Positions 10,843 to 32,880 of a stretch of 32,880 nucleotides of DNA are shown here, piece after piece; position 1 is the first letter of the stretch, and every line of letters begins with the position of its first letter. A model generated the notes under the pieces. It was given only the letters and a program-made list of their open reading frames with translations. It searched no databases and was not told where the DNA came from. The stretch is taken from positions 1 through 32,880 of the forward strand of contig JALHLM010000005.1 in NCBI GenBank assembly GCA_022844585.1. Reading direction: 5' to 3'. The stretch is from Pirellulales bacterium. Lineage in GTDB: Bacteria; Planctomycetota; Planctomycetia; Pirellulales; JALHLM01. A program made the translations under genes and the position numbers.

Positions 10843-12891
10843 TTACACGCCGTCGGCCCGGATCGCCGCCCGGAAATCCTGCATGGCGACGCCGAAGTCG
10901 AAGTAGCATCGCCACTGAATGCCGAGCGTGTTGAAGTCGGTTTCGCCCGACTCGATCGTGGGGGTCGTGACGCCGTTCAGGTACGCGATTTCGAGCGCCG
11001 CCACATCCGCCGGATTGGCGAACAAATACCAAGCGATCGTGCTGGAGCCCGCCAGCGCTTGAGCGTTCAGATATGGCGACGCCACTGGACGGAAACGTCC
11101 CGCGTGCGGGTTGCTTGCCGGTTTCGGCTTATCGGTCGTGGTCGATTCGTTGACGACTCGTTCGCTGAAGAGCTGCTCGGCCACGACCTTGAGGCCGGTC
11201 GGCACGAGCATCAGCGCCGGTTCCAAGGCCACCGGTTCGCCTTGCTCGTCGACCTGGTCCATAAACTTTTGTTCGGCGAGCGTGATGCCCGATACCGAAA
11301 GCGCAGATGTCGAGCCGGTAAGCAAGTTCTTGTTGCCGACCGAGAAGAAGCTCGTCGGGTTCGAAAGCAACAGCGTGAAGACAGCCTTCTCGACGGCGAT
11401 CGCACTCTTGCGCCCGAGGAAGCGGCTCGTGTCGACCAGCGCTTCGAGATCATCGTTATGCAGCTGCTGGCGATTCAGGGCGACCATCCCGCCGTAGGTT
11501 GCGAGCTGGTTCTGGTAACCCTGCTCGCCGAGCGTGAGGTGCTTGAGCTCGCCGTCGGGACCGACCTGTTCCATGCTGCCGGCCATCGTCATCCGATAGC
11601 GGGTGTGGACTTTGAAGTCGGTGTGATTCGCCGTGCGGCAGAAATTCTGGCTCACTCGCGGAACCGCCAGGTAAGCATCCAGCAATGACTTGTTGGCTAC
11701 GTTCCCCAAGATGCCAGGGAGCGAGATCGTGGAGAAACCGCCAGACGCCCGCAGTTGGCGATCCGCCTCGAACGCTGCTTGGATCACTTCGTCATCGATC
11801 TTACCCGGTCGGATCGAACGACCCGCCGCGCGAATGTATTCGTAGAACAAGGTGCCGATCGAGGCTTTTCGCAGCTTGGCCGCATCCATCGCCTCGAGCG
11901 TCTTCTGGTCGTAGCTTTTTTCGATCAGCTCGGCGCTGACGCCGGCGCTCCGGCAAAGCGCCGCTTCGAGCGGTTTTCCAAGGAGCGGCGAGCTATCGCC
12001 ACCATGAATCGCGGGGGCCGCCGGGCGCGAAGCCCGCAGCACTTCGAGTTCCGTGCGTGTGGCGTCCCAGCCTTCTTCGACGGCCTGAGCGGCGATGCCG
12101 GGATGTCGCGTGGCGATCTCGCGGACCTTGGATTGACGCTTGAGCTCCGCAGCGGCGCTCGCCCGAAGTTCCGTTACGTGATCGGCGGTGTCGACCACGG
12201 CCGTACCGTTCGCGTTGGCGGCGACAGGTTTCTCTTGCCCGGCGTCGAACATCGCCCGCAGACTCACCTGCTGGCTGTCATTGAGCTCGGCCAGTTGGAA
12301 CCCCTTGGCGTCGAGCCATTTTTCAAAGTCCATCGAATCTGCCTCCAAAGTCGGTTGCGCTTGGGCGGCAACACGTGCGCTGGTTTGATCGTCCGCCCCA
12401 AGCGTGACGAAACTGACTTCTTGCAAGGTCGCCTTGCGGGCGATGTAGACCGGTCCGTGGACCTCGCCGCCATTGGCCTGCGCCGTCTTGCCCGCCGGCA
12501 CGAAGACCGCCTTCTCGACGAGCGCTCCGACCGACGCCTGCCACGGAAAACCGTTGATTGAACTGGCCACGACCTCTTGCGCGGCGGAGCCGGCACCCGA
12601 GATCAAGCCGTCGACCAAGAGTGAATTCCCCTCGACGCGGATCTGTTCGGCATGACCGACGCGTTGCCGCGTGTCGTGATCCAGCAAGATCGGCTTCGCA
12701 CCGCGCAAGCGACGCAACCCGGCGAGGTCGACCACGACCGGCGCATCCCAGCCGGCAACTAGCATCGCCGCGCCGGTGTAAGCGGTCATGTTGAAACGGC
12801 GCAGGGCCTGCTCGCCATCGCCAGTTGCTTCCAACAGGCGAACCGCGTCCGCAGCACAGGTCATGTGAATTGCGCCGGGCATCCGTTTCAT
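10843..12891 (-). CDS. Prohead protease-major capsid protein fusion
   Basis: 682 aa. N-terminal prohead-protease-like segment (ILLDHDTRQRVGHAEQIRVEGNSLLVDGLIS..WQASVGALVEKAVFV..ATLQEVSFVTLGAD) is continuous with an HK97-fold-like capsid region (NFCRTANHTDFKVHTRYRMTMAGSMEQVGPDGELKH..). Confidence 0.8.
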   Translation of the reverse strand: MKRMPGAIHMTCAADAVRLLEATGDGEQALRRFNMTAYTGAAMLVAGWDAPVVVDLAGLRRLRGAKPILLDHDTRQRVGHAEQIRVEGNSLLVDGLISGAGSAAQEVVASSINGFPWQASVGALVEKAVFVPAGKTAQANGGEVHGPVYIARKATLQEVSFVTLGADDQTSARVAAQAQPTLEADSMDFEKWLDAKGFQLAELNDSQQVSLRAMFDAGQEKPVAANANGTAVVDTADHVTELRASAAAELKRQSKVREIATRHPGIAAQAVEEGWDATRTELEVLRASRPAAPAIHGGDSSPLLGKPLEAALCRSAGVSAELIEKSYDQKTLEAMDAAKLRKASIGTLFYEYIRAAGRSIRPGKIDDEVIQAAFEADRQLRASGGFSTISLPGILGNVANKSLLDAYLAVPRVSQNFCRTANHTDFKVHTRYRMTMAGSMEQVGPDGELKHLTLGEQGYQNQLATYGGMVALNRQQLHNDDLEALVDTSRFLGRKSAIAVEKAVFTLLLSNPTSFFSVGNKNLLTGSTSALSVSGITLAEQKFMDQVDEQGEPVALEPALMLVPTGLKVVAEQLFSERVVNESTTTDKPKPASNPHAGRFRPVASPYLNAQALAGSSTIAWYLFANPADVAALEIAYLNGVTTPTIESGETDFNTLGIQWRCYFDFGVAMQDFRAAIRADGV

Positions 12892-12897
12892 GGATCG

Positions 12898-14343
12898 CTA
12901 TTCCTCCACCACGGCTTCTTCGGTGTCTTCATCTGCCGGCTCGTCGTCCGTTTGCGCTACCTCCGCCGGCGCAAGTCCTAACTCGCGCATGAGCGCGACT
13001 TCCTTGGCCCGCTGCCGGAGAGATTCTTCCCAGTCGCGTCCTTGACGGGCGTATTCGTGCGCGAGCGTCGTGGTGTGATTCGCCAGTCGCTGCGATTGCG
13101 CGAGCGCCTCTTTGGCTGGATCAACATGCTCGTGGCCGTCCCAAAACCACTGATGGGCGAGCGTGGCGATCGGCGGCAGTTCGTCCGGTAGAAGGCCGGG
13201 CACGAGCGCCGCTTCGTCAAACCAAGCGGCCAGAATGCGGTCGAGGATCGTGACCTCGAGTTGCGCCTGCTCGACGCGGAGCGCCTTGAAGTACGTCTGA
13301 TGATCCAGACGACCGGAGGCGTAGTTGTAGCCGGAAGAATTGCCTGCCGCGATGTTGAACGGCATGTTCAGGCAGCGAGCGATCTCGTTCAGAAGTTCGT
13401 GCTTGAATTCGGCGTAGGTGGTGGCTGGCTGTTCCGCTTCCATCTGGCTCATCTTCCAGCCGCCCGGCATCGTGAGCAGCGCCCGCTTTTCAAGTTCGAT
13501 CGGTTCGAACGGTTCGGCGGCGTCCGCTTCGCCGTTGGCCGGCGCGTCCGTGTAGAGGATGCCCGCGAAGTCAGCGGCGGTTTCGGCAGCGCCCAGGACC
13601 GCGAGCGTGAACCGCCGCAATTGGGCAAAGAGCGGAAGGGCCGGCATGATGTCAGGGACGCCGCGGGCCTGGCCGGGACGATCGGCGCGAAACCAATGCA
13701 GTACTGCCTCGGCTGGCAGGCGATCAAACTCTTGACCGAACGCGGCAACAGAATCGCCCGGGTGCTGACGCAGAATGTGGTATTCCACCGGGTTGCCGAA
13801 GCGATCGAACACGATTCCGTCGACCGCCTGCGTGCTGTAGGCGCTCAACAGCGGCGTGGTGACTTGCTCGGCTTCGACGAGACGCAGATCGAGTTGGATC
13901 GGCGTCAAGATCGCCGGGTTACTGGTGAGCAGTGCAAACCCTTCGCCATCCTCGGCGCGGGCGACCCGCAGAGTGCGCAGCTTGTCGGCCAAGTTGACGG
14001 CCCTGGCCCAGGCCGCGAATTCTCGCTCGATCCGTCGATTCGCCGGCACGCTCTCCGAAAGCATCTGCAAACGCGGGCCGGTCCCGATCACGTCGTTGGC
14101 GAGCGTCAACACGATCCCGCGGGCGTAACTATTGTTGGACACCTCGTAACGAGCTCGGTTTCGCAGAACGCGACGCACTTCGGGGCTGTTGGCGGCGTTG
14201 GCGGAGAGCCCGTCGGCGTTCGCCCAGTGTCGGCGGTTCTCGTCGTTGGTGACGGCCGCGTCGTAGCGGGCGCGGACGAACCGCGATCGCCGACTTGGCG
14301 TCGGGGTCGCCGGCGAGAACAACTTGGACAACCAACGGACCAC
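12898..14343 (-). CDS. Phage portal protein (lambda-type family)
   Basis: 481 aa; ARYDAAVTNDENRRHWANADGLSANAANSPEVRRVLRNRARYEVSNNSYARGIVLTLANDVIGTGP is characteristic of lambda-type portals. Confidence 0.9.
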   Translation of the reverse strand: MVRWLSKLFSPATPTPSRRSRFVRARYDAAVTNDENRRHWANADGLSANAANSPEVRRVLRNRARYEVSNNSYARGIVLTLANDVIGTGPRLQMLSESVPANRRIEREFAAWARAVNLADKLRTLRVARAEDGEGFALLTSNPAILTPIQLDLRLVEAEQVTTPLLSAYSTQAVDGIVFDRFGNPVEYHILRQHPGDSVAAFGQEFDRLPAEAVLHWFRADRPGQARGVPDIMPALPLFAQLRRFTLAVLGAAETAADFAGILYTDAPANGEADAAEPFEPIELEKRALLTMPGGWKMSQMEAEQPATTYAEFKHELLNEIARCLNMPFNIAAGNSSGYNYASGRLDHQTYFKALRVEQAQLEVTILDRILAAWFDEAALVPGLLPDELPPIATLAHQWFWDGHEHVDPAKEALAQSQRLANHTTTLAHEYARQGRDWEESLRQRAKEVALMRELGLAPAEVAQTDDEPADEDTEEAVVEE

Positions 14344-14760: not shown

Positions 14761-15939
14761 TCAGTGACCTTCGATCGCCGAAATCTCGTCAGGCGACAAT
14801 TGCCATTTTTGGCATAATGTCAGAGCGCCTTGAATCTCTTGCGCGACGTGTGGCAGTCGGAGCTCCGGAGAGGAAATCGCCTCTTCGCTGTTCACGAATC
14901 GCCAATCGTTCGGCGTGCCAAGTTGTTGTTCCACTTGTTCATTTGTCACTTCAATGCCTCGGACAAATGGAACGTGGTCGGGAGATGTCGGATCGAAAAT
15001 ATACGAAAAGTCCATAGCCCATGGCCGGGACGCAAACAATGGAGCATCGGGAGACTTGAAAAACTCGGCGCGGACCGCGTGGTCAGTGTGCAAATGGCCC
15101 GCATAGGAGCCGCAGTCTTTACCCTTCAGCTTTTCGAGGTCAGGTAGCGGCACGTCTTCGTTCCATTCATACTGCTTAAATGGTCCATTGATGTCGACGT
15201 CCATGAGCCAGGTTGCACGACCATCTTTTGTGACGGCGGCCGTGTCAATGGTCAGCATAGCCGTGCGCAGTGCCCACTCAATCCGTGTGCTTCTTTTTTC
15301 GTACCACTCTTGAGTCATGATCATGTGACCCAAACTGTTTGCGGTGAACGCGATTCCGCCGGGAATCCTATGGTCATGCCACCATCTTCCTTCTGCTGCA
15401 CTGGCAAAGTAATCGACCGAAAACGTAAACTGCCATGTTTTCTGGGTGCCTGGATTCAAGAGATACAAAGATTCGCTGACGATGTCGTTTCCCTCGCTGT
15501 CCATCGCGTTGGACCAGCCAGCAAGTTGCTGCAATCGAAGCGAGAACTGGCGTAGCGATTCGTCCGGTGCCGCAAACGCTAACCGTTGCGACGCAACGAC
15601 GAGCATGAATCCATGAAGGGGTCGACCACGAAACGCGCGGCGCTTCCACAGAAGTCTTGACTCAAGAATCTTCTGAGAGACATGTTCATCTGATTCGAGC
15701 AAGTCTCGATCAGTCAAAAAACAGTACTGCAGTTGTCCCTTCGCAGCGGCAATGCGCCCAAAGAGGCATGGCTGCTCTCGCTGCAACCAGGACTTAAGCG
15801 ACTCCTCGCGTTCCGTATCATAGGCGAATGGATGGAACAATACTCTGTTAACAATCTGCGATTCCTCCGAAAATGGATTCGAATCTCGCCAACGGTCCAC
15901 GGTTAGACCGTCATACAATGCTTTTAGAGTTGTTGTCAT
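14761..15939 (-). CDS. Uncharacterised protein, third gene of the trypsin cassette
   Basis: 392 aa ORF; ATGA overlap with the preceding small gene; no family recognised. Confidence 0.75.
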   Translation of the reverse strand: MTTTLKALYDGLTVDRWRDSNPFSEESQIVNRVLFHPFAYDTEREESLKSWLQREQPCLFGRIAAAKGQLQYCFLTDRDLLESDEHVSQKILESRLLWKRRAFRGRPLHGFMLVVASQRLAFAAPDESLRQFSLRLQQLAGWSNAMDSEGNDIVSESLYLLNPGTQKTWQFTFSVDYFASAAEGRWWHDHRIPGGIAFTANSLGHMIMTQEWYEKRSTRIEWALRTAMLTIDTAAVTKDGRATWLMDVDINGPFKQYEWNEDVPLPDLEKLKGKDCGSYAGHLHTDHAVRAEFFKSPDAPLFASRPWAMDFSYIFDPTSPDHVPFVRGIEVTNEQVEQQLGTPNDWRFVNSEEAISSPELRLPHVAQEIQGALTLCQKWQLSPDEISAIEGH

Positions 15940-16151
15940 GAGCCGATTGGACTTAAAGAACCGAACTTCTTGATTGTCACCGGAAAACCGTGCCAGCCAT
16001 CACGCAAGTATTCCAGATCTGGCGGCCGGTTTGAAGACAGATAAAGCACGATCGCCTCCTGTCCATCTTTAAGGCCGATTCCGATCGAAACCAGCCATGA
16101 TGGACGGCCAATATGCTCTCGAAGCTCTGTTGCAGCTTCTTGAATGCTCAT
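15936..16151 (-). CDS. Small protein resembling the N-terminal domain of the adjacent trypsin-like protease
   Basis: 71 aa; WLVSIGIGLKDGQEAIVLYLSSN...GFPVTIKKFG aligns by eye with YVGMEVQAVGFEHGKENPGVVIYATKG...GVSVTIRKIGG of the protease. Starts by TGATG overlap with the protease stop. Confidence 0.8.
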   Translation of the reverse strand: MSIQEAATELREHIGRPSWLVSIGIGLKDGQEAIVLYLSSNRPPDLEYLRDGWHGFPVTIKKFGSLSPIGS

Positions 16152-17239
16152 CAGATGCCGTGTTGCGCAACGAGTGAAATACCGCCAAAAAGCGAAAGGA
16201 CGTGAGAGATGGGCATCATCAAACCGTAGTCGCCTGTCTTGTTGGATGAGAATAGCACACCAACGGCGTACTTCGCATCTTCGCTGACCACGAGTGACCC
16301 TGAATCACCGGGAAGGGCAAAATGCGGCCCATCACCCATCACGTACCACATGTTTTTGAACCAAACGGTTCCCTTAAAATACTTTGTTTGACAGGGGATC
16401 GGAGTGGGCTCGTCGATGAGGGCTTCCACCGTACCGAAAGACTTTCCAGTCGTACGACCGGTTTTCATGACTTTCAGACCAGCCGATGGGCTCAGTATGG
16501 CGGAGGGCGTATCGTAGCCTTGATCGTCGCCCTGCCACGAACTCACCTTTGAAGGATCTGGGATCAATCCAATCGCGACGTCTTCCACACATGGATGCAC
16601 GAGTTCTGGGTCTCCGCTGCGCAGCGGTACGATTTCAGAATGTCGTGCAATTTCGCCAGGGGAGCGGAGTTGCGGTGCGGCGTCGACATTTGCTGGGGCA
16701 AGGATAGGCATGTTTACCGGCGTATGATTGCACGCCCCGAAAACATGGTTGTTGGACAGTGCAAAGAGTTGGCCATTACGAGAGACGATTGCTCCGAAGG
16801 TTCCGGCATACTCCGCACCTGCAGGGGCACACGAGCTCCCACAGGCAATGCGCTTCATCCGTTCGAACACATGTGGTTGTCCAGTATTCCCGTGAGCTAG
16901 CTCCGGCTTAATGTTCACGCCGCCGATTTTTCGAATTGTTACACTCACTCCATTGACTTCGACGGGCAACTTGCGAAAGTCTCGCGCCGAACCTTTTGTG
17001 GCGTAGATCACAACGCCGGGGTTTTCCTTTCCATGTTCAAACCCGACTGCCTGCACCTCCATACCGACGTAGGCTTCACTAGCATCCCACAGAGGCTGAG
17101 CATTCTGGATTGCCGCAAGTTGCATGCCGACTCCTTTTGTACCGATCGGCGTACCGACTGCCGAATATCGACCTTCTTCGCGAAATCTTTGAGCCAAAAT
17201 CGCTGCCGCCTTTTTTGCCTTTAGAACTGCACTGCCCAC
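16151..17239 (-). CDS. Trypsin-like (chymotrypsin-fold) serine protease with N-terminal domain
   Basis: Triad candidates LSNNHVFG (His), EDVAIG (Asp), LPGDSGSLVV (Ser) in the correct order and spacing. Confidence 0.85.
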   Translation of the reverse strand: MGSAVLKAKKAAAILAQRFREEGRYSAVGTPIGTKGVGMQLAAIQNAQPLWDASEAYVGMEVQAVGFEHGKENPGVVIYATKGSARDFRKLPVEVNGVSVTIRKIGGVNIKPELAHGNTGQPHVFERMKRIACGSSCAPAGAEYAGTFGAIVSRNGQLFALSNNHVFGACNHTPVNMPILAPANVDAAPQLRSPGEIARHSEIVPLRSGDPELVHPCVEDVAIGLIPDPSKVSSWQGDDQGYDTPSAILSPSAGLKVMKTGRTTGKSFGTVEALIDEPTPIPCQTKYFKGTVWFKNMWYVMGDGPHFALPGDSGSLVVSEDAKYAVGVLFSSNKTGDYGLMMPISHVLSLFGGISLVAQHGI

Positions 17240-17254
17240 GCGACGCCCCCGTTT

Positions 17255-17515
17255 CTATGTTTTTGGTGGTTGCCCACCTTCAAACTTAACTGGTCGTGCT
17301 TCACTCTGCCATATGGGGGCCTTCCATCCCCCGATTGGGTGCTCCCAGGTCGAAAGCCGCCTGCGACACTTCAGGCATTCTCGCCGGCGCATGATCACGC
17401 CAGCCGCTGCAGCGCGCGTGTATACTACTCTGGTCCGATTAGACCCACATTGGGGACAAATCAGCCCCTTTGAATCATTGGAATTGACGTCAAATTGTTT
17501 CGACTTCATGGTCAT
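17255..17515 (-). CDS. Zinc-ribbon protein
   Basis: CPQCGSNRTRVVYTR...RRRECLKCRRRLSTWE, an NrdR/Ogr-like CxxC pair; ATGA overlap with the terminase stop. Confidence 0.7.
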   Translation of the reverse strand: MTMKSKQFDVNSNDSKGLICPQCGSNRTRVVYTRAAAAGVIMRRRECLKCRRRLSTWEHPIGGWKAPIWQSEARPVKFEGGQPPKT

Positions 17516-19779
17516 GAACGCTTCCTCTGTAGCTGTGCGAAACTGACTCGATCTCGTCGCGCCGGCGTGGCATTTCCTCCCGTTCCCTCAAGCGCGGCCC
17601 CCTGGATCGACGCGGCAACGGCCGCTCCGACAAGGCAGTCCAGCCAATGGTTATCCGCCCGCTCCGGGCGCAGCTTCCATTCGTCCACCGTCCGTCCTCG
17701 CCCTTCGGTCTTTACCCGATATTCACTTGTCAGATGTTCAGCCAGTAAGCGGTGCAGATCGGCGCGATCGCCGAAAAGGGACAAACAACCTCGGCCGCCC
17801 ATCGGTACAGCCAACCGGGCATGCACGAACGTCTTCCAGTAATTGGTGTCGAATACCGTGTGACGGACCGCCCGCTTGCCGGCGACGTTGGGCATCCGCC
17901 AGTTGTGGCCAATCCGGTCGCCGGGGCGGCGTTTGTACTCGGAGAACGGTTGGCTCGAAGCGCCGACGAAGTGACCGTGGCTCGGCATCACGATACCGGC
18001 ATGCGCCGACTGGCGGCAGAACTGGTAAACGACATCGGTCGACGAGCCCCAGTTCGCGTCGACCAGACAGCGCTCGATCCGTAGCATGGCCCCGTCGTCG
18101 CGACGCCATTCACGGTTTAGACGATCGCGGGTCAACCGATCGAGGCCGGCGTAGATCGCCCCTTCGAGGCCGCTGGCGGCCGTCACGATCGGAAGCGTCT
18201 GCCGCACGTCACGCAACGTGAAGTGCGCTCGCTTCTGATCCGGGTAGGTGCCGTAGTCAATCACGTAGCCAGTGAAATCGTCCTCCCAGGCCGCCACGAG
18301 GTAGAAGAGGATCGACGCCTGCACATCGACAAACATCGTCAAATGGCTGCAACCGATCGGAACATCACTGCGGCGCAATCGGTTGAATTTGGCCGCGATC
18401 TGATCGGCGGTGAGCTCGTCGTCTTGAGCAGTAGCCGCGGGTAATGGTTCGTTCTGATACTCCGCGAAGAACGCCGCTTCGTCTTGGAGCTTTAAGTTCA
18501 TCGCATGTTGAATCGCCGACAGCTCGTCGTGATTGAACCGTTCTGGCCAGGCAATGACCGCCCCCTCGTCCATCGCCTCGCGGTTGACACCATAGAAATC
18601 GGTGGCCTCCTCGCCATGTCGCTCCGCTCGCAGGCTCTCAGCGCGAACCTCGGCATATTGCTGCCATAGTTTCTCGTTGGCGGGAAAGGCGTAGACCATC
18701 TTGGTGCGCTGCCCGTTCCACTCTGGGTGCTTGTCGCGCGAAAGAATGTTGTCCGCCATGTCGCTCGGGCGGATCACGGTGCAGGGCATGATGCCGGAGA
18801 TTTTTTTCCCCGGGCCAGCGAGGCCGAGCACGGCACCAGCCAAGATGCTTTCGCGCGTCGCGCACTGCGACAGCGAACGTGCTGATTCGTCTGTCTGAGG
18901 ATCATCGAGCACGACGAGCGTCGGGCGCACCGTGTGACCGTCAGCACGCTTGTACTTCATACCGCGAATGCGTCCCGTGATCCCTGCCACCTTGATGATC
19001 GCGCCACTGGCCTTGCTGCCGGGCATTGTGGGAAGCACGATCTCCCGAGCGGTCCAACCGATGTGCGTGCGATCGCCCTGGTAAAGCTGCCCGTTACAAC
19101 GATTGGCGATGCCATCGAGCGCCTGAATCGGGAACATGACCTCCGGAAAGTCTTCGAGTAGAAGCTCGTTCCCGTCGAGCTCCATCTTGATCGACTCGAG
19201 CATGTCCATTGCGTGCCCTTCGTCCGAGCCGATAAGACAGACGAATTCGCGGTGGCCATAGAGCACCGACCAAATGCAGGCACACTCACAGATAGTCGTC
19301 TTGCCGGAACCACGCGGCATCGCCATCGCAAAGAGGCCGCCGCGTAGGACGGCCTCCTCGATCTTGGCGATGACTTTCAAGTGGTCCGATGACCAGGGCA
19401 GGTGGAACGTCAGCGGGAAGTAGGAATCGCAGAACAGCCGAAAATCGGAAGCGGCCTTGGCCTTTCGCTCCGGATTCACGATGTCTGGCAATTCACCGAT
19501 GTCCCGCCCAGCGATGGCGAGGGCGACGTTCCGTGCCCGGGCACGATCCTTCATCCGTTCGTAAGGATCGCCGCCCGGTTCCGGCTTAGGCGCGTGTCGC
19601 TCCGCGAAGAGCCAGGCGACGTAACGCAACAGATCAACGTGCCGCGCGTCACCGATACGCAGTCCCGCCCTTGTGCGATGGCGATGCAACTGCCGCTCGT
19701 TGATCACTTCGCCGAGCGGCGTCGAGTTCAACAAGCGGCAAAGCTCGCTGGGTCGCAGTTTGCGGGGATCATTCGCCAC
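17512..19779 (-). CDS. Phage terminase large subunit
   Basis: 755 aa; Walker A AMPRGSGKTT, Walker B-like LVVLDDPQ, nuclease-like C-terminal region; followed in operon order by the portal. Confidence 0.92.
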   Translation of the reverse strand: MANDPRKLRPSELCRLLNSTPLGEVINERQLHRHRTRAGLRIGDARHVDLLRYVAWLFAERHAPKPEPGGDPYERMKDRARARNVALAIAGRDIGELPDIVNPERKAKAASDFRLFCDSYFPLTFHLPWSSDHLKVIAKIEEAVLRGGLFAMAMPRGSGKTTICECACIWSVLYGHREFVCLIGSDEGHAMDMLESIKMELDGNELLLEDFPEVMFPIQALDGIANRCNGQLYQGDRTHIGWTAREIVLPTMPGSKASGAIIKVAGITGRIRGMKYKRADGHTVRPTLVVLDDPQTDESARSLSQCATRESILAGAVLGLAGPGKKISGIMPCTVIRPSDMADNILSRDKHPEWNGQRTKMVYAFPANEKLWQQYAEVRAESLRAERHGEEATDFYGVNREAMDEGAVIAWPERFNHDELSAIQHAMNLKLQDEAAFFAEYQNEPLPAATAQDDELTADQIAAKFNRLRRSDVPIGCSHLTMFVDVQASILFYLVAAWEDDFTGYVIDYGTYPDQKRAHFTLRDVRQTLPIVTAASGLEGAIYAGLDRLTRDRLNREWRRDDGAMLRIERCLVDANWGSSTDVVYQFCRQSAHAGIVMPSHGHFVGASSQPFSEYKRRPGDRIGHNWRMPNVAGKRAVRHTVFDTNYWKTFVHARLAVPMGGRGCLSLFGDRADLHRLLAEHLTSEYRVKTEGRGRTVDEWKLRPERADNHWLDCLVGAAVAASIQGAALEGTGGNATPARRDRVSFAQLQRKRS

Positions 19780-21404: not shown

Positions 21405-22718
21405 TCACGTCGCCACCTCGGCGAGCGCCACGCGTTCGGCCTTCTTGCCGGTGAATTTTTCGAAGCGCTGCACGATGACGTCACAATAGAGCGCGTCGAG
21501 TTCCATCAGGTACGCCCGTCGGCCCGTCTGCTCGGCGGCGATCAACGTTGATCCACTGCCGCCAAATAGGTCCAACACATTCTCGCCCGGGCGCGACGAG
21601 TATTGCATCGCCCGCACTGCCAGCTCGACCGGTTTCTCGGTGAGATGCACCATCGACTGTGGGTTGACCTTCTTGATGCTCCAAACGTCGACGGCGTTGT
21701 TCGGCCCGAGGTAGAGATGGGCAGCGCCCTCTCGCCAACCGTAGAAGCACCACTCATGGTTGCCCATGAAATCCTTGCGGGTCAGAACTGGATGCTCCTT
21801 CACCCAGATGATAGCTTGTGAGAAGTAGAGCTCGCAGGCCTTCAGTACCGGCGGATAGTTCGCGCAGTTGGCATAACCGCCCCAGATGTAGAACCCTCTT
21901 CCCGGCGCGAGCACTCGGGCCATATTGCCAAACCAGGCAGAGAGCAGTTCGTCGAACGCAACATCGCTCACGAAGTCGTTTGCCAACGGTCGATCTTTGG
22001 CACGCAGCTTCTTCTGTGTCGGCTTGGACTTCTCCGGGTGGCGCGCCAGGTCGAGCGATTGATGGTGCTTGGGGCCGGCAAAGGAACTCAGGCCGGCGGC
22101 GATGGCGTTGTTCGAACGCGGCTCGACTTTGACGTTATACGGCGGGTCGCTATTCACGAGGTGGATCACAGCGCCGTCGAGCAACCGATCGACGTCATCC
22201 GGCTTGCTCGAATCGCCGCAGAGCAACCGGTGCTCCCCGAGAATCCACAAGTCGGCAGGCCGCGTGTTCGCTTGGTCCGGCGGCGCTGGCACATCGTCCG
22301 GATCGCACAGCCCGTCCTTCGCGGACGGATTGAGCAGCTTCAGGAGCTCGTCTTCGTAGAACCCCAGCAAACCGAGGTCGTAGTTCAGTGCCTGCAGCTC
22401 GCCCAACTCAATCGGCAGCAGGTCGTAGTTCCACTCGGCCAGCTCGGCCGTTTTGTTGTCGGCGATCCGGTACGCCTTGATCTGCTCGGGCGTCAGGTCT
22501 TTGGCGACATGGACCGGCACCTTTTCCAGGCCCAGGTGCTGGGCTGCCTTCCACCGCGTGTGCCCACAGATGATGACGCCCTCGGCGTCGACCACGATCG
22601 GCTGCCGGAAGCCAAACTCCCGGATGCTCGCCGCCACGGCAACGACAGCGTCGTCGTTGAGGCGAGGATTGCCGGCATAGGGCGTGATCTTGACAATCCG
22701 CCAGAGAGAGACTTGCAT
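21405..22718 (-). CDS. ParB-like nuclease domain-DNA methyltransferase fusion
   Basis: ParB N-terminus (IREFGFRQPIVVDAEGVIICGHTRWKAAQHLGLEKVPVHVA), DPPY motif (NSDPPYNVKVE), SAM-binding DLFGGSGSTLIAAEQTGRRAYLMELD. Confidence 0.92.
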   Translation of the reverse strand: MQVSLWRIVKITPYAGNPRLNDDAVVAVAASIREFGFRQPIVVDAEGVIICGHTRWKAAQHLGLEKVPVHVAKDLTPEQIKAYRIADNKTAELAEWNYDLLPIELGELQALNYDLGLLGFYEDELLKLLNPSAKDGLCDPDDVPAPPDQANTRPADLWILGEHRLLCGDSSKPDDVDRLLDGAVIHLVNSDPPYNVKVEPRSNNAIAAGLSSFAGPKHHQSLDLARHPEKSKPTQKKLRAKDRPLANDFVSDVAFDELLSAWFGNMARVLAPGRGFYIWGGYANCANYPPVLKACELYFSQAIIWVKEHPVLTRKDFMGNHEWCFYGWREGAAHLYLGPNNAVDVWSIKKVNPQSMVHLTEKPVELAVRAMQYSSRPGENVLDLFGGSGSTLIAAEQTGRRAYLMELDALYCDVIVQRFEKFTGKKAERVALAEVAT

Positions 22719-23046: not shown

Positions 23047-24189
23047 GTGCCCACGCTTCCATTGGCCAGACGCGGAAAGAAACTTGTAAGCCGAAACTCG
23101 CTTGTCGAGTTTTCGTATTTCCCGACGTATCGAGGTGCTCGACGCGCAGGAATTCATACAAAAGTCTACACGACCGATGCATGGGCGGTAATCAAAGCAG
23201 CTGTTCGACAATCATGCCCAGCGATTGATCGACCAACAGCATCTGCCTTTGTAGATCAGGCAGAGGAGTTTTATCGTGCTGCTGCAAATGCACAGAGCCA
23301 CTACGGGCGGCCCCTCTTGCTCTACTACGCCTTCATGAATCTCGCCAAGGCCCTCTGTTTGCACAGGGGAAATCGCAGTGTGCTCGGCAAGTCGCAACAC
23401 GGATTGGAAGATGCCAACAACTCTGCAGCAGATCTGCTGAATGTAACATTAAATGCATATCCTTCTAACAACACCGTTCCTCCACCAAGGGGGCCTAAAA
23501 TCAATGTGTTTCATGAGTTCTTGGTTTCGGCAACTGGTACTGGCCTCGCCGCACAGGAGACGTACCTAATGCGAGATATTCTCGCATCCTCGTTAGTTGG
23601 CCATCGTCTATGGACCGAAGCGGCGAATTCTGAGGATCGGTTCCTCAAATTGGTCTCCATGGACATCATGCACGACAGCAATTCGAATACGCTTTGGCTT
23701 CGCGCCTCAATTAAGAACAGCAGCCTTTCAAAGAACGGATTGACACGAGCCAAGGTGACGAGCGATGGCTTCGGCCCCGGATGGAGGGCCGTCAGAATGA
23801 GGGGAAACACCGGCACCGAGCTGGCAGTTTGGGAGCAGTTGCAGCCTGTGACATTCTCGCATCGGCCGTCGGACGTGCTCGAACAGTTGGCAGACACTGC
23901 GCGGCGATTGTTCTACCGCTCGCTCACAACTTCAGAGCCTTTCCGAAGCTACTACGTTTATGTGCCGCCGACGGGCTTTTCCAAGCCTCGGCAGCTTGCC
24001 TCTCGATATATTCTTCTATTCTTTCTGGGATCAGTGACCCGATATCGTCCAGCCGATTTTGCTACTTACTTGGATGGAGAGTTCGGTCCCTTTCTGGCGG
24101 AATTTTTAGCCTCCGAGCCCGGCCAAGGGCTGTTTGAAATGGCATGTCTGTTTGTGAATCGTGAAGTTGTCAGCGTCGGACTTGCATGA
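23047..24189 (+). CDS. YaaC-like protein
   Basis: 380 aa from GTG; LLLYYAFMNLAKALC and C-terminal YILLFFLGSVTRYRPADFATYL resemble the YaaC family pattern; opposite strand to its neighbours. Confidence 0.6.
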   Translation: MPTLPLARRGKKLVSRNSLVEFSYFPTYRGARRAGIHTKVYTTDAWAVIKAAVRQSCPAIDRPTASAFVDQAEEFYRAAANAQSHYGRPLLLYYAFMNLAKALCLHRGNRSVLGKSQHGLEDANNSAADLLNVTLNAYPSNNTVPPPRGPKINVFHEFLVSATGTGLAAQETYLMRDILASSLVGHRLWTEAANSEDRFLKLVSMDIMHDSNSNTLWLRASIKNSSLSKNGLTRAKVTSDGFGPGWRAVRMRGNTGTELAVWEQLQPVTFSHRPSDVLEQLADTARRLFYRSLTTSEPFRSYYVYVPPTGFSKPRQLASRYILLFFLGSVTRYRPADFATYLDGEFGPFLAEFLASEPGQGLFEMACLFVNREVVSVGLA

Positions 24190-29163: not shown

Positions 29164-31431
29164 CTAGTTTTTTTCGCGCTCCCGAGAACGAACTTCCAGA
29201 TTAGACACTGTCCATCCGAGTCTGTCCATTTCACGGACAAGTTCCGTATAGACTTGGGATTCTTGGTCGTGGCTCATGATTGTAACGACCAGGAATGCCG
29301 GTAAAGGCTCCTCCTCAAAACACTCGGCGCGGTTGGTCATTTTCAAGTGCAATCGCCAATCACGACCGGCCGGCGTCTTCTTGAATCGTCGGTAGTAGGT
29401 TTTCATTGGTGCCCATTGAACGCCAAAATCCGACAGCGCTGGCGGATATCGTTTGCATAAGTCTTTTGGCGACGGGTGGACTTCTCGGCCTCCGTAAACT
29501 TCCCCTTTCTCCTCGTCAAATTCCAAGAATCCAAGCGACGCGTCGATGTTTCGTCGACAGTATTCGACTCCAAATGCACGATCCAATGGCGAGTCGTAGA
29601 TCAGGGTCATAAAGACGTCACATTTCAGCATGCCAGCGACGTTCAGACACGGTGGCATTGCAAATGGATGTTTATAGAATCGCAGCCTCGTTTGAACAGG
29701 AGCCTGGAAGATTACTGTCGCACGAGACTGTTTGCAGTGCAGAATTTCGCCCGCATCAGGCGGCCGACCGTAGCCCGTATACTCAATGACGTCTGGCACA
29801 GGAGGACCATTTTCGACAAATGCCGAATGCACAACTAGCGCTTTGACCAGCAATGGATTTGAAGCGCTTCCGTCAGTTCTCAACTCCGACTCGACGGTGC
29901 CTGCAATCGCTGAAATCAGGGGTGTTGCGTAACTAACTCCAACGTGTTCAATGAGTTGTCGGTTCAAGCCGAGGGAGACTACACCCGTCTGAAAATAGTT
30001 GCCCTGGCTATCGCAGTTCCCTGCGTAGTGACTAACCTCGGGCTTTGGAATACCGCCAAGTCCTGGGCCTCGCAGGGAGAAAGGACTGACCTGCTCTCGC
30101 CGCACGCACGTGCTATCGTTGTCAGAATGTGCGAGCCCGCCTACCGTCAGTCCCCTAAGTCCATCGCCCGGAGGGGCTAATCTATCTTGTCCAGAAAAGG
30201 AAGAATCGACCGGCCATCCTCGATATGGCGTCGCGCTCATATTCCCAGCAGCAACCACAAAGAGCACTCCGAATTGCTTCTGCAAGTCGTCAATCGCCGC
30301 ACCGAATTCGGACATTGAATTGGAATTACATGCTACGCCCGACGACGCAAGTGACAGATTCCACACTCCAACCTCGGGAAACAGCTTCAGGGATTCCTCG
30401 AACAAATCCAGCAACTGCGATTCCTCAGCCTCGCCAGAATGGTCGAAAACGACAACGTCAACAACCTTGCAGGACGTGGAAGGAAAGCGGGGATTTCCGT
30501 GGTTTAAGTGCCGGCCATTTGCAATGAGCCCGGCGACGAATGTTCCGTGGGAGTTATCCTGAAGTTCTTGCGGATGCCAATCCTTTCGCGCGACAATCCA
30601 CTGTTGCAATGCCTCATTGTCAGGATCAGTGCCGGAATCAAACATTCCGATCAGCGGATAATTGCTGTCACGATCTGGGGATGGAAAGCAATCATCAGTC
30701 ATCGGCCCCAGAACGCGTGCAGCAGTACGCACCAGCCGAAAACGAGGCATTGCACACACGTTTTGTGTGCCTGGAAAGCTAGCCAGCCGCGCCGCAACTT
30801 GTGGGTTCTGAGCCTCGCAGCGATAAATGCGAACTCCTCGCCCATAGTTGACTTGCTTCAATCCTGTTGCTCCATTTTCTTGCGCAAATCTCTCAAATTC
30901 GCGTTCGAGCAAGCGATCGTACGCATTGTTTCTGTGGCGAAACAGCTTTACGCGGAGCGATTGCCGTTTGCTCGCTTGCTCAGTCAATTCACGTTCTAAC
31001 GCATCGCTGGCGGTATAAGGTTCAATCTCTTGCAGAGTGGAAAGATGAGACACTGCATCCTTTGACGCGGCTGTCATGATTCGCTGTTCTAGCTTTGTGA
31101 GACCGCTGGCAGTTGCGCTCACAAACAAGGTTCCTGCTTCGGACACACCGATGATCGGGCATGTGTCGTCGCGAAGAATCTCATCTGGACGATACGACTT
31201 CTTGCGAGCCTCTTCCTTCAACACGACCTTCGCCACTGCTGGCATTCCATTTTGCAGGGCCTGCTCAAACGTCTTGGCAACGTTCTTAACTTGCGCGGCG
31301 TAGTTGCGCCTGTAATTCGCGTCAACTGTACAGAGCGGATCGAAACCTCCACCTTTCTCGTTTGGCTCTTTGAAGTCGATGTCCTTAGTGGGCAGCACAA
31401 CTTTAATCGGGAGCAGATCTTTGTCAGCCAT
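29164..31431 (-). CDS. S8 (subtilisin-like) serine peptidase paired with AAA ATPase
   Basis: Triad motifs LIGMFDSGTD (Asp), DNSHGTFVAGLIA (His), HVGVSYATPLISAIAG (Ser). ATG overlaps the AAA stop (ATGGCTGA). Confidence 0.9.
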   Translation of the reverse strand: MADKDLLPIKVVLPTKDIDFKEPNEKGGGFDPLCTVDANYRRNYAAQVKNVAKTFEQALQNGMPAVAKVVLKEEARKKSYRPDEILRDDTCPIIGVSEAGTLFVSATASGLTKLEQRIMTAASKDAVSHLSTLQEIEPYTASDALERELTEQASKRQSLRVKLFRHRNNAYDRLLEREFERFAQENGATGLKQVNYGRGVRIYRCEAQNPQVAARLASFPGTQNVCAMPRFRLVRTAARVLGPMTDDCFPSPDRDSNYPLIGMFDSGTDPDNEALQQWIVARKDWHPQELQDNSHGTFVAGLIANGRHLNHGNPRFPSTSCKVVDVVVFDHSGEAEESQLLDLFEESLKLFPEVGVWNLSLASSGVACNSNSMSEFGAAIDDLQKQFGVLFVVAAGNMSATPYRGWPVDSSFSGQDRLAPPGDGLRGLTVGGLAHSDNDSTCVRREQVSPFSLRGPGLGGIPKPEVSHYAGNCDSQGNYFQTGVVSLGLNRQLIEHVGVSYATPLISAIAGTVESELRTDGSASNPLLVKALVVHSAFVENGPPVPDVIEYTGYGRPPDAGEILHCKQSRATVIFQAPVQTRLRFYKHPFAMPPCLNVAGMLKCDVFMTLIYDSPLDRAFGVEYCRRNIDASLGFLEFDEEKGEVYGGREVHPSPKDLCKRYPPALSDFGVQWAPMKTYYRRFKKTPAGRDWRLHLKMTNRAECFEEEPLPAFLVVTIMSHDQESQVYTELVREMDRLGWTVSNLEVRSREREKN

Positions 31432-32539
31432 GTGAATGCTCCTTATTCAGGATTTTGTGAATCGCGGGCTGCGACAAGCCGACCAGTTTGCCCAAGGCCG
31501 CTTCCGTGAACAGCCGCTCATCTAGCGCTCTCAGCTGGCGGATCATACTGTCGCGATCAACGCTGTCGCGACCGGTCTCCCTGAGCAATGCCGAAGCAAT
31601 TCCGGCTGCGTCGGCGACATTAGACCGTTGAAGCACTGCTGCGCGAATCGCGTCGTCCGCCACAAGCTTGATTTGCGCGCCCGACAGACCATCACTTAAC
31701 CGGGAAAAAACTTCATCCCATCCCGAAGGTGCAAATCTGCTCAGAAACTTTTGCATCAATTGAGTGCGACATTCAGCGTTGGGCGTATCCAATCTCAGTC
31801 GGCATGCGAATCTGCGCCAAATTGCAGAATCAAGGAGATGTTCGTGGTTCGTGGCCGCGAGCAACACATGGTCTTTGTCAAGTGCGTCGATGTTCTGTAA
31901 TAAACTAATCACCACGCGCTTAAGTTCGCCAAGCTCTCGACCGTCGTCACGCTTCTTTGCAATTGCGTCAAATTCGTCGAGAAACAAAACACAAGGTTCT
32001 GCCATCGCGAATTCGAACAGTCGCCGAACATTCTTGGATGTGCTTCCCAAATAGGAAGAAATCAGGCCGTCACTTCGCGCTGTAACGAGTGGAAGTCCAA
32101 GCTCAGCTGCGATAAAGCGAGCGGTCAATGTCTTTCCATTGCCTGGCGGACCATAGAGAAGCATTGTCGGGGAAATGCCAACGCCGCTTTCTGTCAGCCG
32201 ATCTGATTCGCGAATGTACACAACGAATTGTCGAATTGCATTGAGATTCGACTCTGAAAGAATCAAGTCGACGGAACCCGATTGAACGAATTCACGGTCG
32301 GCGATGCTAAGCGCTGACTCAGCGTCCACGGGGATCGCTCCCCCCTGCCCCCTCGCAATAGACGCCTTCCTAGCCGGACGCTTCTCAACGATTCGTTGCA
32401 GGCGATCAGCTTCCTTGACAGCACCAGAGGTTCGTAGATCGTCAATGAACTGTCGAAGATATGCGGCAGCTGACTCGGCATTGCCGACAATAGCCGCCTC
32501 GGCCATCTTGGACACAAAAAAAAGGTCTTTTCCGTCCAC
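31424..32539 (-). CDS. AAA+ ATPase with C-terminal HTH-like segment
   Basis: Walker A LLYGPPGNGKTLTA, Walker B CVLFLDEFDAIAKK, sensor LLAATNHEHLL, Arg finger AIWRRFACRLRL; C-terminal LFTEAALGKLVGLSQPAIHKILNKE. Start placed at GTG 32539 with SD AAGGGG; ATG 32506 is an alternative and the track start 32635 looks too long. Confidence 0.88.
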   Translation of the reverse strand: MDGKDLFFVSKMAEAAIVGNAESAAAYLRQFIDDLRTSGAVKEADRLQRIVEKRPARKASIARGQGGAIPVDAESALSIADREFVQSGSVDLILSESNLNAIRQFVVYIRESDRLTESGVGISPTMLLYGPPGNGKTLTARFIAAELGLPLVTARSDGLISSYLGSTSKNVRRLFEFAMAEPCVLFLDEFDAIAKKRDDGRELGELKRVVISLLQNIDALDKDHVLLAATNHEHLLDSAIWRRFACRLRLDTPNAECRTQLMQKFLSRFAPSGWDEVFSRLSDGLSGAQIKLVADDAIRAAVLQRSNVADAAGIASALLRETGRDSVDRDSMIRQLRALDERLFTEAALGKLVGLSQPAIHKILNKEHSHG

Positions 32540-32578
32540 AGACAGCCCCTTGCGGTTATTGAAAGCGGCACAATGGTA

Positions 32579-32607
32579 ATTATGTCGGCGATTATTAGTT
32601 ATTGCAA
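32579..32607 (-). promoter_or_regulatory. Putative promoter of the AAA-S8 operon
   Basis: Minus strand TTGCAA (32602-32607), 17-nt spacer, CATAAT (32579-32584), about 40 nt upstream of GTG 32539. Confidence 0.45.
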
Positions 32608-32880
32608 CATCAAAAATGGTTATTTTTTGGCGCAATCTGGGAATGTGCTTGGGTTTGCCGAGAAGTCCAGCAGTTCGCGAGCGATGGAAATGCTGGCGTT
32701 GGCGGCTAATTATCGGTGCTCAAGACGCGCGAGTTCGGCGGAGCATTCCTTCCGATACGTTGAGACCGCTAGTGCGACGTGGTGCGACAAAGCGGAGGGA
32801 TTCTGCAAAATCTTCAAGCGCAACGAAGTTCCGCGGCCGTGAACCCGATCTTCGGTTCTGTAAAGATCGAATCGCCCCGA

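What the first reader, a model, noticed from the sequence alone, without database searches (positions are those of the whole stretch)
15936..17130. Stand-alone small protein resembles the protease's own N-terminal domain (possible trans-acting propeptide or inhibitor)
By eye, WLVSIGIGLKDGQEAIVLYLSSNRPPDLEYLRDGWHGFPVTIKKFGSL aligns with YVGMEVQAVGFEHGKENPGVVIYATKGSARDFRKLPVEVNGVSVTIRKIGGV, which precedes the protease catalytic domain. Protease propeptides can act as intramolecular chaperones and inhibitors, and stand-alone versions can inhibit in trans. A duplicated pro-domain encoded next to the protease is therefore a plausible control element.
Basis: partly seen in the sequence, partly recalled or inferred. 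Interest (0 to 1): 0.8.

Follow-up and report, generated by a model that had tools for sequence, protein, structure and literature searches.

The report
Protease with a stand-alone domain partner
A phage-borne protease gene is followed by a tiny gene that encodes a free-standing relative of the protease's own front domain, and the same two-gene pairing recurs across bacteria and archaea, which points to an unnamed partner protein that probably controls this protease family.

Summary
The 71-aa ORF (15936-16151, -) resembles residues ~62-109 of the upstream protease: blastp E=3e-4; 2 of 5,000 shuffles score as high. Family profiles settle it: hhalign 99.2%, E=1.9e-19, against at best 2.2% and E=0.022 for column-shuffled controls. 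Both are predicted as the same beta-beta-alpha-beta core. The protease is a NAL1-type trypsin-fold enzyme with its catalytic triad; its N-domain belongs to Pfam NAL1_N. None of 50 small proteins matches a Pfam family.

Stand-alone copies lie beside NAL1-like proteases in planctomycetes, other bacteria, archaea, prophages and plasmids, and in three proteases the domain is fused C-terminally. They form their own lineage, track the protease phylogeny (r=0.74) and lack the conserved K/K/D signature of the in-cis domain. So this is an ancient, co-inherited partner, not a copy of this protease's own domain.

'Propeptide' is not supported: the domain is present in solved NAL1 chains and no subtilisin-propeptide fold is found. 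Inhibition is plausible but untested. I favour a trans-acting regulatory subunit, probably a restraining one. In this phage the pair is low-GC3 accessory cargo; the same contig carries an IetAS defence system.

The parts
15936..16151 (-). Small gene: 71-aa stand-alone NAL1_N-like domain; predicted helix-strand-strand-helix-strand
16151..17239 (-). NAL1-like trypsin-fold serine protease, 362 aa (GTG start)
   Evidence: Pfam Nal1_C E=3e-4, below that model's cut-off; phrog_25502 E=2e-46; Foldseek of the AF2 model to rice NAL1 E=2.4e-15
16904..17071 (-). N-terminal NAL1_N-type domain of the protease, about residues 57-112
   Evidence: Pfam NAL1_N matches 38 of 45 aligned homologous N-domains, though not this divergent member itself
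16745..16747 (-). Codon of catalytic His165 (SNNHV)
   Evidence: invariant in a 45-sequence alignment
16580..16582 (-). Codon of catalytic Asp220 (inferred from the alignment)
   Evidence: invariant in a 45-sequence alignment
16301..16303 (-). Codon of catalytic Ser313 (GDSGS)
   Evidence: invariant in a 45-sequence alignment
16149..16153 (-). TGATG overlap of protease stop and small-gene start (translational coupling)
   Evidence: a comparable stop/start overlap in L004 (TAATG) and L008 (TGATG)
14761..15939 (-). 392-aa protein of unknown function, ATGA overlap with the small gene; same low GC3, but not part of the conserved pair
17255..17515 (-). 86-aa NrdR-type zinc-ribbon protein upstream of the protease, same low GC3; not seen next to the other pairs read here
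   Evidence: (Zn_ribbon_NrdR E=8e-13)

Best explanation
The small gene encodes a free-standing NAL1_N-like domain, an ancient paralogue of the N-terminal domain of NAL1-type serine proteases, kept as a dedicated partner of the protease. Shown: homology, same predicted topology, recurrent adjacency, C-terminal fusion to proteases that lack the N-domain, co-inheritance, loss of the cis-domain signature residues, and an intact catalytic triad. Inferred: the small protein is made in step with the protease by stop/start overlap, binds it in trans, and sets its activity, most likely by holding it in a restrained state until a signal or substrate displaces it. In this phage the pair is accessory cargo, not a virion-assembly part.
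For: Recurrence: of 80 distinct proteases from a GTDB-wide scan, 28 have the domain on the same strand within 300 nt downstream, 16 within 300 nt upstream and 6 at about 0.8-1.3 kb; of 41 planctomycete proteases 20 have it downstream and 2 upstream. Fusions: secreted proteases L099, L101 and L103 lack the N-domain and carry the domain at the C-terminus. Flanking genes are otherwise not conserved over 51 pairs, so the pair is the unit. Distances of small protein and catalytic domain correlate, r=0.74 for 63 pairs, best of 2,000 permutations 0.20. In 392 phylum genomes about 15 of 22 short stand-alone hits lie within 1.5 kb of a NAL1-like protease (my count). Stand-alone copies have lost K31 (82% in N-domains, 21% in stand-alones), K46 (91%, 23%) and D68 (91%, 17%) and end at a stereotyped C-terminus: 45 of 77 at two positions. 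Cargo: GC3 0.47-0.56 for the cassette, 0.73-0.76 for terminase, portal and capsid.
Against: No biochemical evidence exists here, and no complex model could be run. The sign of regulation is unknown. In L174, L193, L203 and L207 the small ORF begins with a hydrophobic, signal-like stretch that the protease lacks, although internal starts are possible; two different compartments would argue against direct binding there. Most phage NAL1-like proteases (53 of 60 IMG/VR loci) have no adjacent small gene, so the partner is not needed by the whole family. A few stand-alone copies are not next to any protease. Co-inheritance (r=0.74) is partly shared ancestry.
Confidence: 0.55

Rival explanations
1. 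Propeptide-type element in trans: the small protein is a folding chaperone and active-site inhibitor of the protease, as the stand-alone propeptide-like protein SUB1-ProM is for the Plasmodium subtilase SUB1.
For: Stand-alone domain beside its protease, a stereotyped C-terminus that could reach an active site, and the SUB1-ProM precedent (PMC6993865). The catalytic fold also resembles alpha-lytic protease, whose pro region is a known foldase (own knowledge).
Against: The homologous cis domain is present in solved NAL1 chains. No subtilisin-propeptide fold match. Fusion at the C-terminus and an ancient separate lineage.
Confidence: 0.15
2. Non-inhibitory subunit: the small domain completes or stabilises an oligomer, or recruits substrate, so that it activates or targets the protease.
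For: NAL1 entries hold many copies per entry (6 chains in 8hau, 8has and 8pn2) and include open and closed forms, so the family is probably oligomeric. The domain occurs at the N-terminus, at the C-terminus and free, and as four tandem copies in L230.
Against: Stand-alone copies lost the charged residues that typify the cis domain, so they do not simply replace it. No oligomer data for bacterial members.
Confidence: 0.27
3. The small protein has an independent function and adjacency is inherited linkage only.
For: Some stand-alone copies are solitary, among them lipoprotein-like ones in L211 and L221.
Against: Adjacency recurs downstream, upstream and divergently in unrelated phyla, with fusions and otherwise unconserved flanks.
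Confidence: 0.03

Closest known systems
NAL1 (NARROW LEAF 1) serine proteases of plants; Pfam NAL1_N PF25608 and Nal1_C PF25819
   Same: Protease domain order NAL1_N then trypsin-fold catalytic domain; best fold match E=2.4e-15; N-domain profile hits the NAL1 chain at E=4e-6.
   Different: No separate gene for the N-domain turned up in the plant NAL1 records seen here; in the loci studied a second, diverged copy of the domain is a separate protein beside the protease.
Stand-alone subtilisin propeptide-like inhibitors, e.g. Plasmodium SUB1-ProM (PMC6993865)
   Same: Small protein related to a protease's N-terminal domain and encoded next to the protease genes.
   Different: Different protease fold (S8) and no fold match to that kind of propeptide; inhibition shown for SUB1-ProM, untested here.
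Alpha-lytic-type proteases with a pro region acting as foldase and inhibitor
   Same: Similar trypsin-like catalytic fold (E=2.6e-10).
   Different: The N-domain here is NAL1_N, present in solved NAL1 chains; no relation to the alpha-lytic pro region was found.

Membership tests
NAL1-type serine protease (the 362-aa protein) | Trypsin-fold catalytic domain like NAL1 | tested here: met
   34 best Foldseek hits are all NAL1 chains, best E=2.4e-15; Nal1_C E=3e-4 but below that model's curated cut-off
NAL1-type serine protease (the 362-aa protein) | His-Asp-Ser triad | tested here: met
   H165, D220 and S313 invariant in 45 homologues; activity not tested
NAL1-type serine protease (the 362-aa protein) | NAL1_N domain before the catalytic domain | tested here: met
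   Homologous to domains of which 38 of 45 match PF25608; the window member itself is too divergent for Pfam, found by local profile and model
NAL1_N domain family (the 71-aa protein) | Match to Pfam PF25608 | tested here: not met
   0 of 50 stand-alone members match any Pfam family below E=0.018
NAL1_N domain family (the 71-aa protein) | Remote homology to NAL1_N domains | tested here: met
   hhalign 99.2%, E=1.9e-19, with shuffled controls
Subtilisin propeptide-like (I9-type) inhibitors | Propeptide fold | tested here: not met
   No PDB match below E=0.1 and no such propeptide among the top 50
Subtilisin propeptide-like (I9-type) inhibitors | Inhibits the cognate protease | not testable with these tools
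   Needs an enzyme assay
Known anti-phage defence system | Match of any cassette protein to a PADLOC model | tested here: not met
   0 hits for the four cassette proteins

The most novel reading that the evidence does not exclude
A mobile proteolytic switch: protease plus stand-alone NAL1_N-like restrainer, carried by (pro)phages and plasmids together with varying third genes (here the 392-aa protein) as target or effector, acting in competition between phages or in host control, as the IetAS system on the same contig does.
Probability: 0.15. Interest if true: 0.85.

Novelty: new variant of a known kind. Interest (0 to 1): 0.6.

Why it matters
NAL1 controls leaf shape and flowering in cereals (PMC12915138 for maize), and how this protease family is kept in check is, to my knowledge, not settled. 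A dedicated, genetically coupled partner in prokaryotes, widespread yet absent from Pfam, NCBIfam, PADLOC and PHROGs, would give a simple two-protein system in which regulation of NAL1-type proteases can be tested directly. It would also name a large set of small hypothetical proteins.

Tried and rejected
Direct scan of viral contigs and phage records with the window protease alone found no relative; an alignment was needed. The 392-aa gene as a third conserved component: rejected, no homologue beside any other pair; its only clear relatives are 350-aa proteins on small mobilizable enterobacterial plasmids, next to a DMT transporter in the records opened. C-terminal fusions called by script in L170 and L188 were rejected: the domain there is the ordinary N-domain and an earlier GDSG-like string misled the rule. 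'Upstream partners' in L026, L034 and L048 were rejected as split N-domains. Recent duplication inside this phage: rejected by the tree. Fold search of the small model gave no significant match, so it neither supports nor names a fold. Docking of the domain on the active site could not be examined because model coordinates are not exposed and no complex prediction is offered. Literature search found no paper on prokaryotic or phage NAL1-like proteases with such a partner in the open library; subscription papers were not searched.

Full report
What is there. On the - strand, between the GpA-type terminase (17512-19779) and the lambda-type portal (12898-14343), four genes overlap or abut: an 86-aa zinc-ribbon protein (17255-17515), a 362-aa protease (16151-17239), a 71-aa protein (15936-16151) and a 392-aa protein (14761-15939). 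The protease stop and the small-gene start overlap as TGATG; the small-gene stop and the next start overlap as ATGA.

The protease. It matches Pfam Nal1_C weakly (E=3e-4, below that model's cut-off), phrog_25502 strongly (E=2e-46) and rice NAL1 by sequence (E=0.005). Its AlphaFold2 model (pLDDT 88, pTM 0.88) finds NAL1 structures first (E=2.4e-15) and then alpha-lytic and Streptomyces proteases. His165, Asp220 and Ser313 are invariant over 45 homologues.

The claimed resemblance. Pairwise: blastp E=3e-4, 2 of 5,000 shuffles as good. I collected 208 loci from whole genomes, IMG/VR and GTDB contigs and searched all their ORFs with a position-blind profile of the small protein. It retrieves stand-alone ORFs and protease N-domains alike. 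Profile against profile gives 99.2% and E=1.9e-19, with column-shuffled controls at 2.2% and E=0.022 at best. Models show the same strand-strand-helix-strand order with a preceding helix. The N-domain is Pfam NAL1_N (38 of 45 members match) and hits the NAL1 chain in the PDB at E=4e-6. No stand-alone member matches Pfam.

It is a conserved pair. Among 181 distinct proteases, the GTDB-wide set of 80 has the domain on the same strand within 300 nt downstream in 28, upstream in 16, and about 1 kb downstream in 6. The planctomycete set of 41 has it downstream in 20, upstream in 2, on the other strand in 2, and fused at the C-terminus in 3. Of 60 IMG/VR proteases only the window's close relatives (L016, L017, and L018, whose protease frame is broken) carry it directly downstream. 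The GTDB loci are the 80 best hits, so the percentages are biased towards relatives of pair-bearing queries, and a few loci count twice (L133). Two Rhizobium plasmids carry the pair divergently. Fusions L099, L101 and L103 are secreted proteases without an N-domain and with the domain at the C-terminus. Over 51 pairs no other neighbour recurs beyond close relatives.

It is an old partner, not a copy of this protease's domain. In a domain tree the two classes change only 10 times against about 56 in label shuffles; 63 of 66 stand-alone tips have a stand-alone nearest neighbour and 2 of 66 their own N-domain; the window protein is nearest to L016, L017 and L018 (short domain, weak branch support). 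Distances correlate with those of the catalytic domain at r=0.74, as well as the covalently linked N-domain does (0.71 against 0.68 in the shared subset). The stand-alone class keeps the core glycines and hydrophobic positions but loses K31, K46 and D68. In the window clade the protease's own N-domain has also lost the TDV motif, which is what made the likeness visible by eye. The stand-alone proteins end at a stereotyped place after the last strand: 45 of 77 at two positions.

What it probably does. Adjacency, fusion and co-inheritance argue that the two proteins act together (inference, strong). Whether the small protein restrains, assembles, targets or folds the protease is not decided. The propeptide reading is the weakest of these, because the cis domain is part of solved NAL1 chains, no propeptide fold was found, and the domain also works its way to the C-terminus. 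I commit to a regulatory subunit with a restraining role as most likely, because a trans copy made in step with an active serine protease is the usual design of a guard; that last step is inference.

Role in the phage. GC3 is 0.54 for the protease, 0.47 for the small gene, 0.56 for the 392-aa gene and 0.54 for the zinc ribbon, against 0.73 for the terminase and 0.76-0.77 for portal and capsid; IetS and IetA on the same contig have 0.53 and 0.52. The relatives L016 and L017 carry the pair beside Xre/S24-like repressor genes (read from the translations). So the pair is accessory cargo placed at different phage sites. A defence or host-control role is possible; no PADLOC model matches.

Literature. 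No paper on prokaryotic NAL1-like proteases with a stand-alone domain was found in the open library. The closest concept is SUB1-ProM of Plasmodium, a stand-alone propeptide-like inhibitor encoded beside subtilase genes (PMC6993865). Maize NAL1a degrades a TOPLESS-like corepressor (PMC12915138).

Noticed in passing
window 29164-32635 (-): Complete IetAS anti-phage system: IetA AAA ATPase 31424-32635 (PADLOC E=1e-122) and IetS subtilisin-like protease 29164-31431 (E=9e-215), with low GC3 like the protease cassette.
   Followed up: partly
window 14761-15939 (-): 392-aa orphan; residues 20-207 resemble a 350-aa hypothetical protein on small mobilizable E. coli, Salmonella and Klebsiella plasmids, next to a DMT transporter in the records opened; a sub-threshold YqcI_YcgG hint (E=0.13).
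   Followed up: partly
window 10843-12891 (-): 682-aa ORF whose C-terminal part is Phage_capsid_4; the first ~370 residues have no Pfam match and may be a fused prohead protease (by eye only).
   Followed up: no
window 21405-22718 (-) and 23047-24189 (+): ParB_N plus N6/N4 DNA methyltransferase fusion, and a low-GC3 YaaC-like gene on the opposite strand.
   Followed up: no
L240 and L241 (Rhizobium plasmids): NAL1-like protease and divergent stand-alone domain beside radical SAM and HExxH peptide-modification genes, as in a RiPP-like cluster; the protease could be its maturation enzyme.
   Followed up: partly
L230 1438-2919 (+): 493-aa ORF with four tandem copies of the small domain; no NAL1-like protease found in the sequence held.
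   Followed up: no
L166 4960-5898 and L189 3302-4219: A related-looking ~305-aa unknown protein lies between protease and stand-alone domain in these loci; possible substrate or third component.
   Followed up: no
L211 and L221: Solitary stand-alone domains behind a lipoprotein-like signal, not adjacent to a protease.
   Followed up: no
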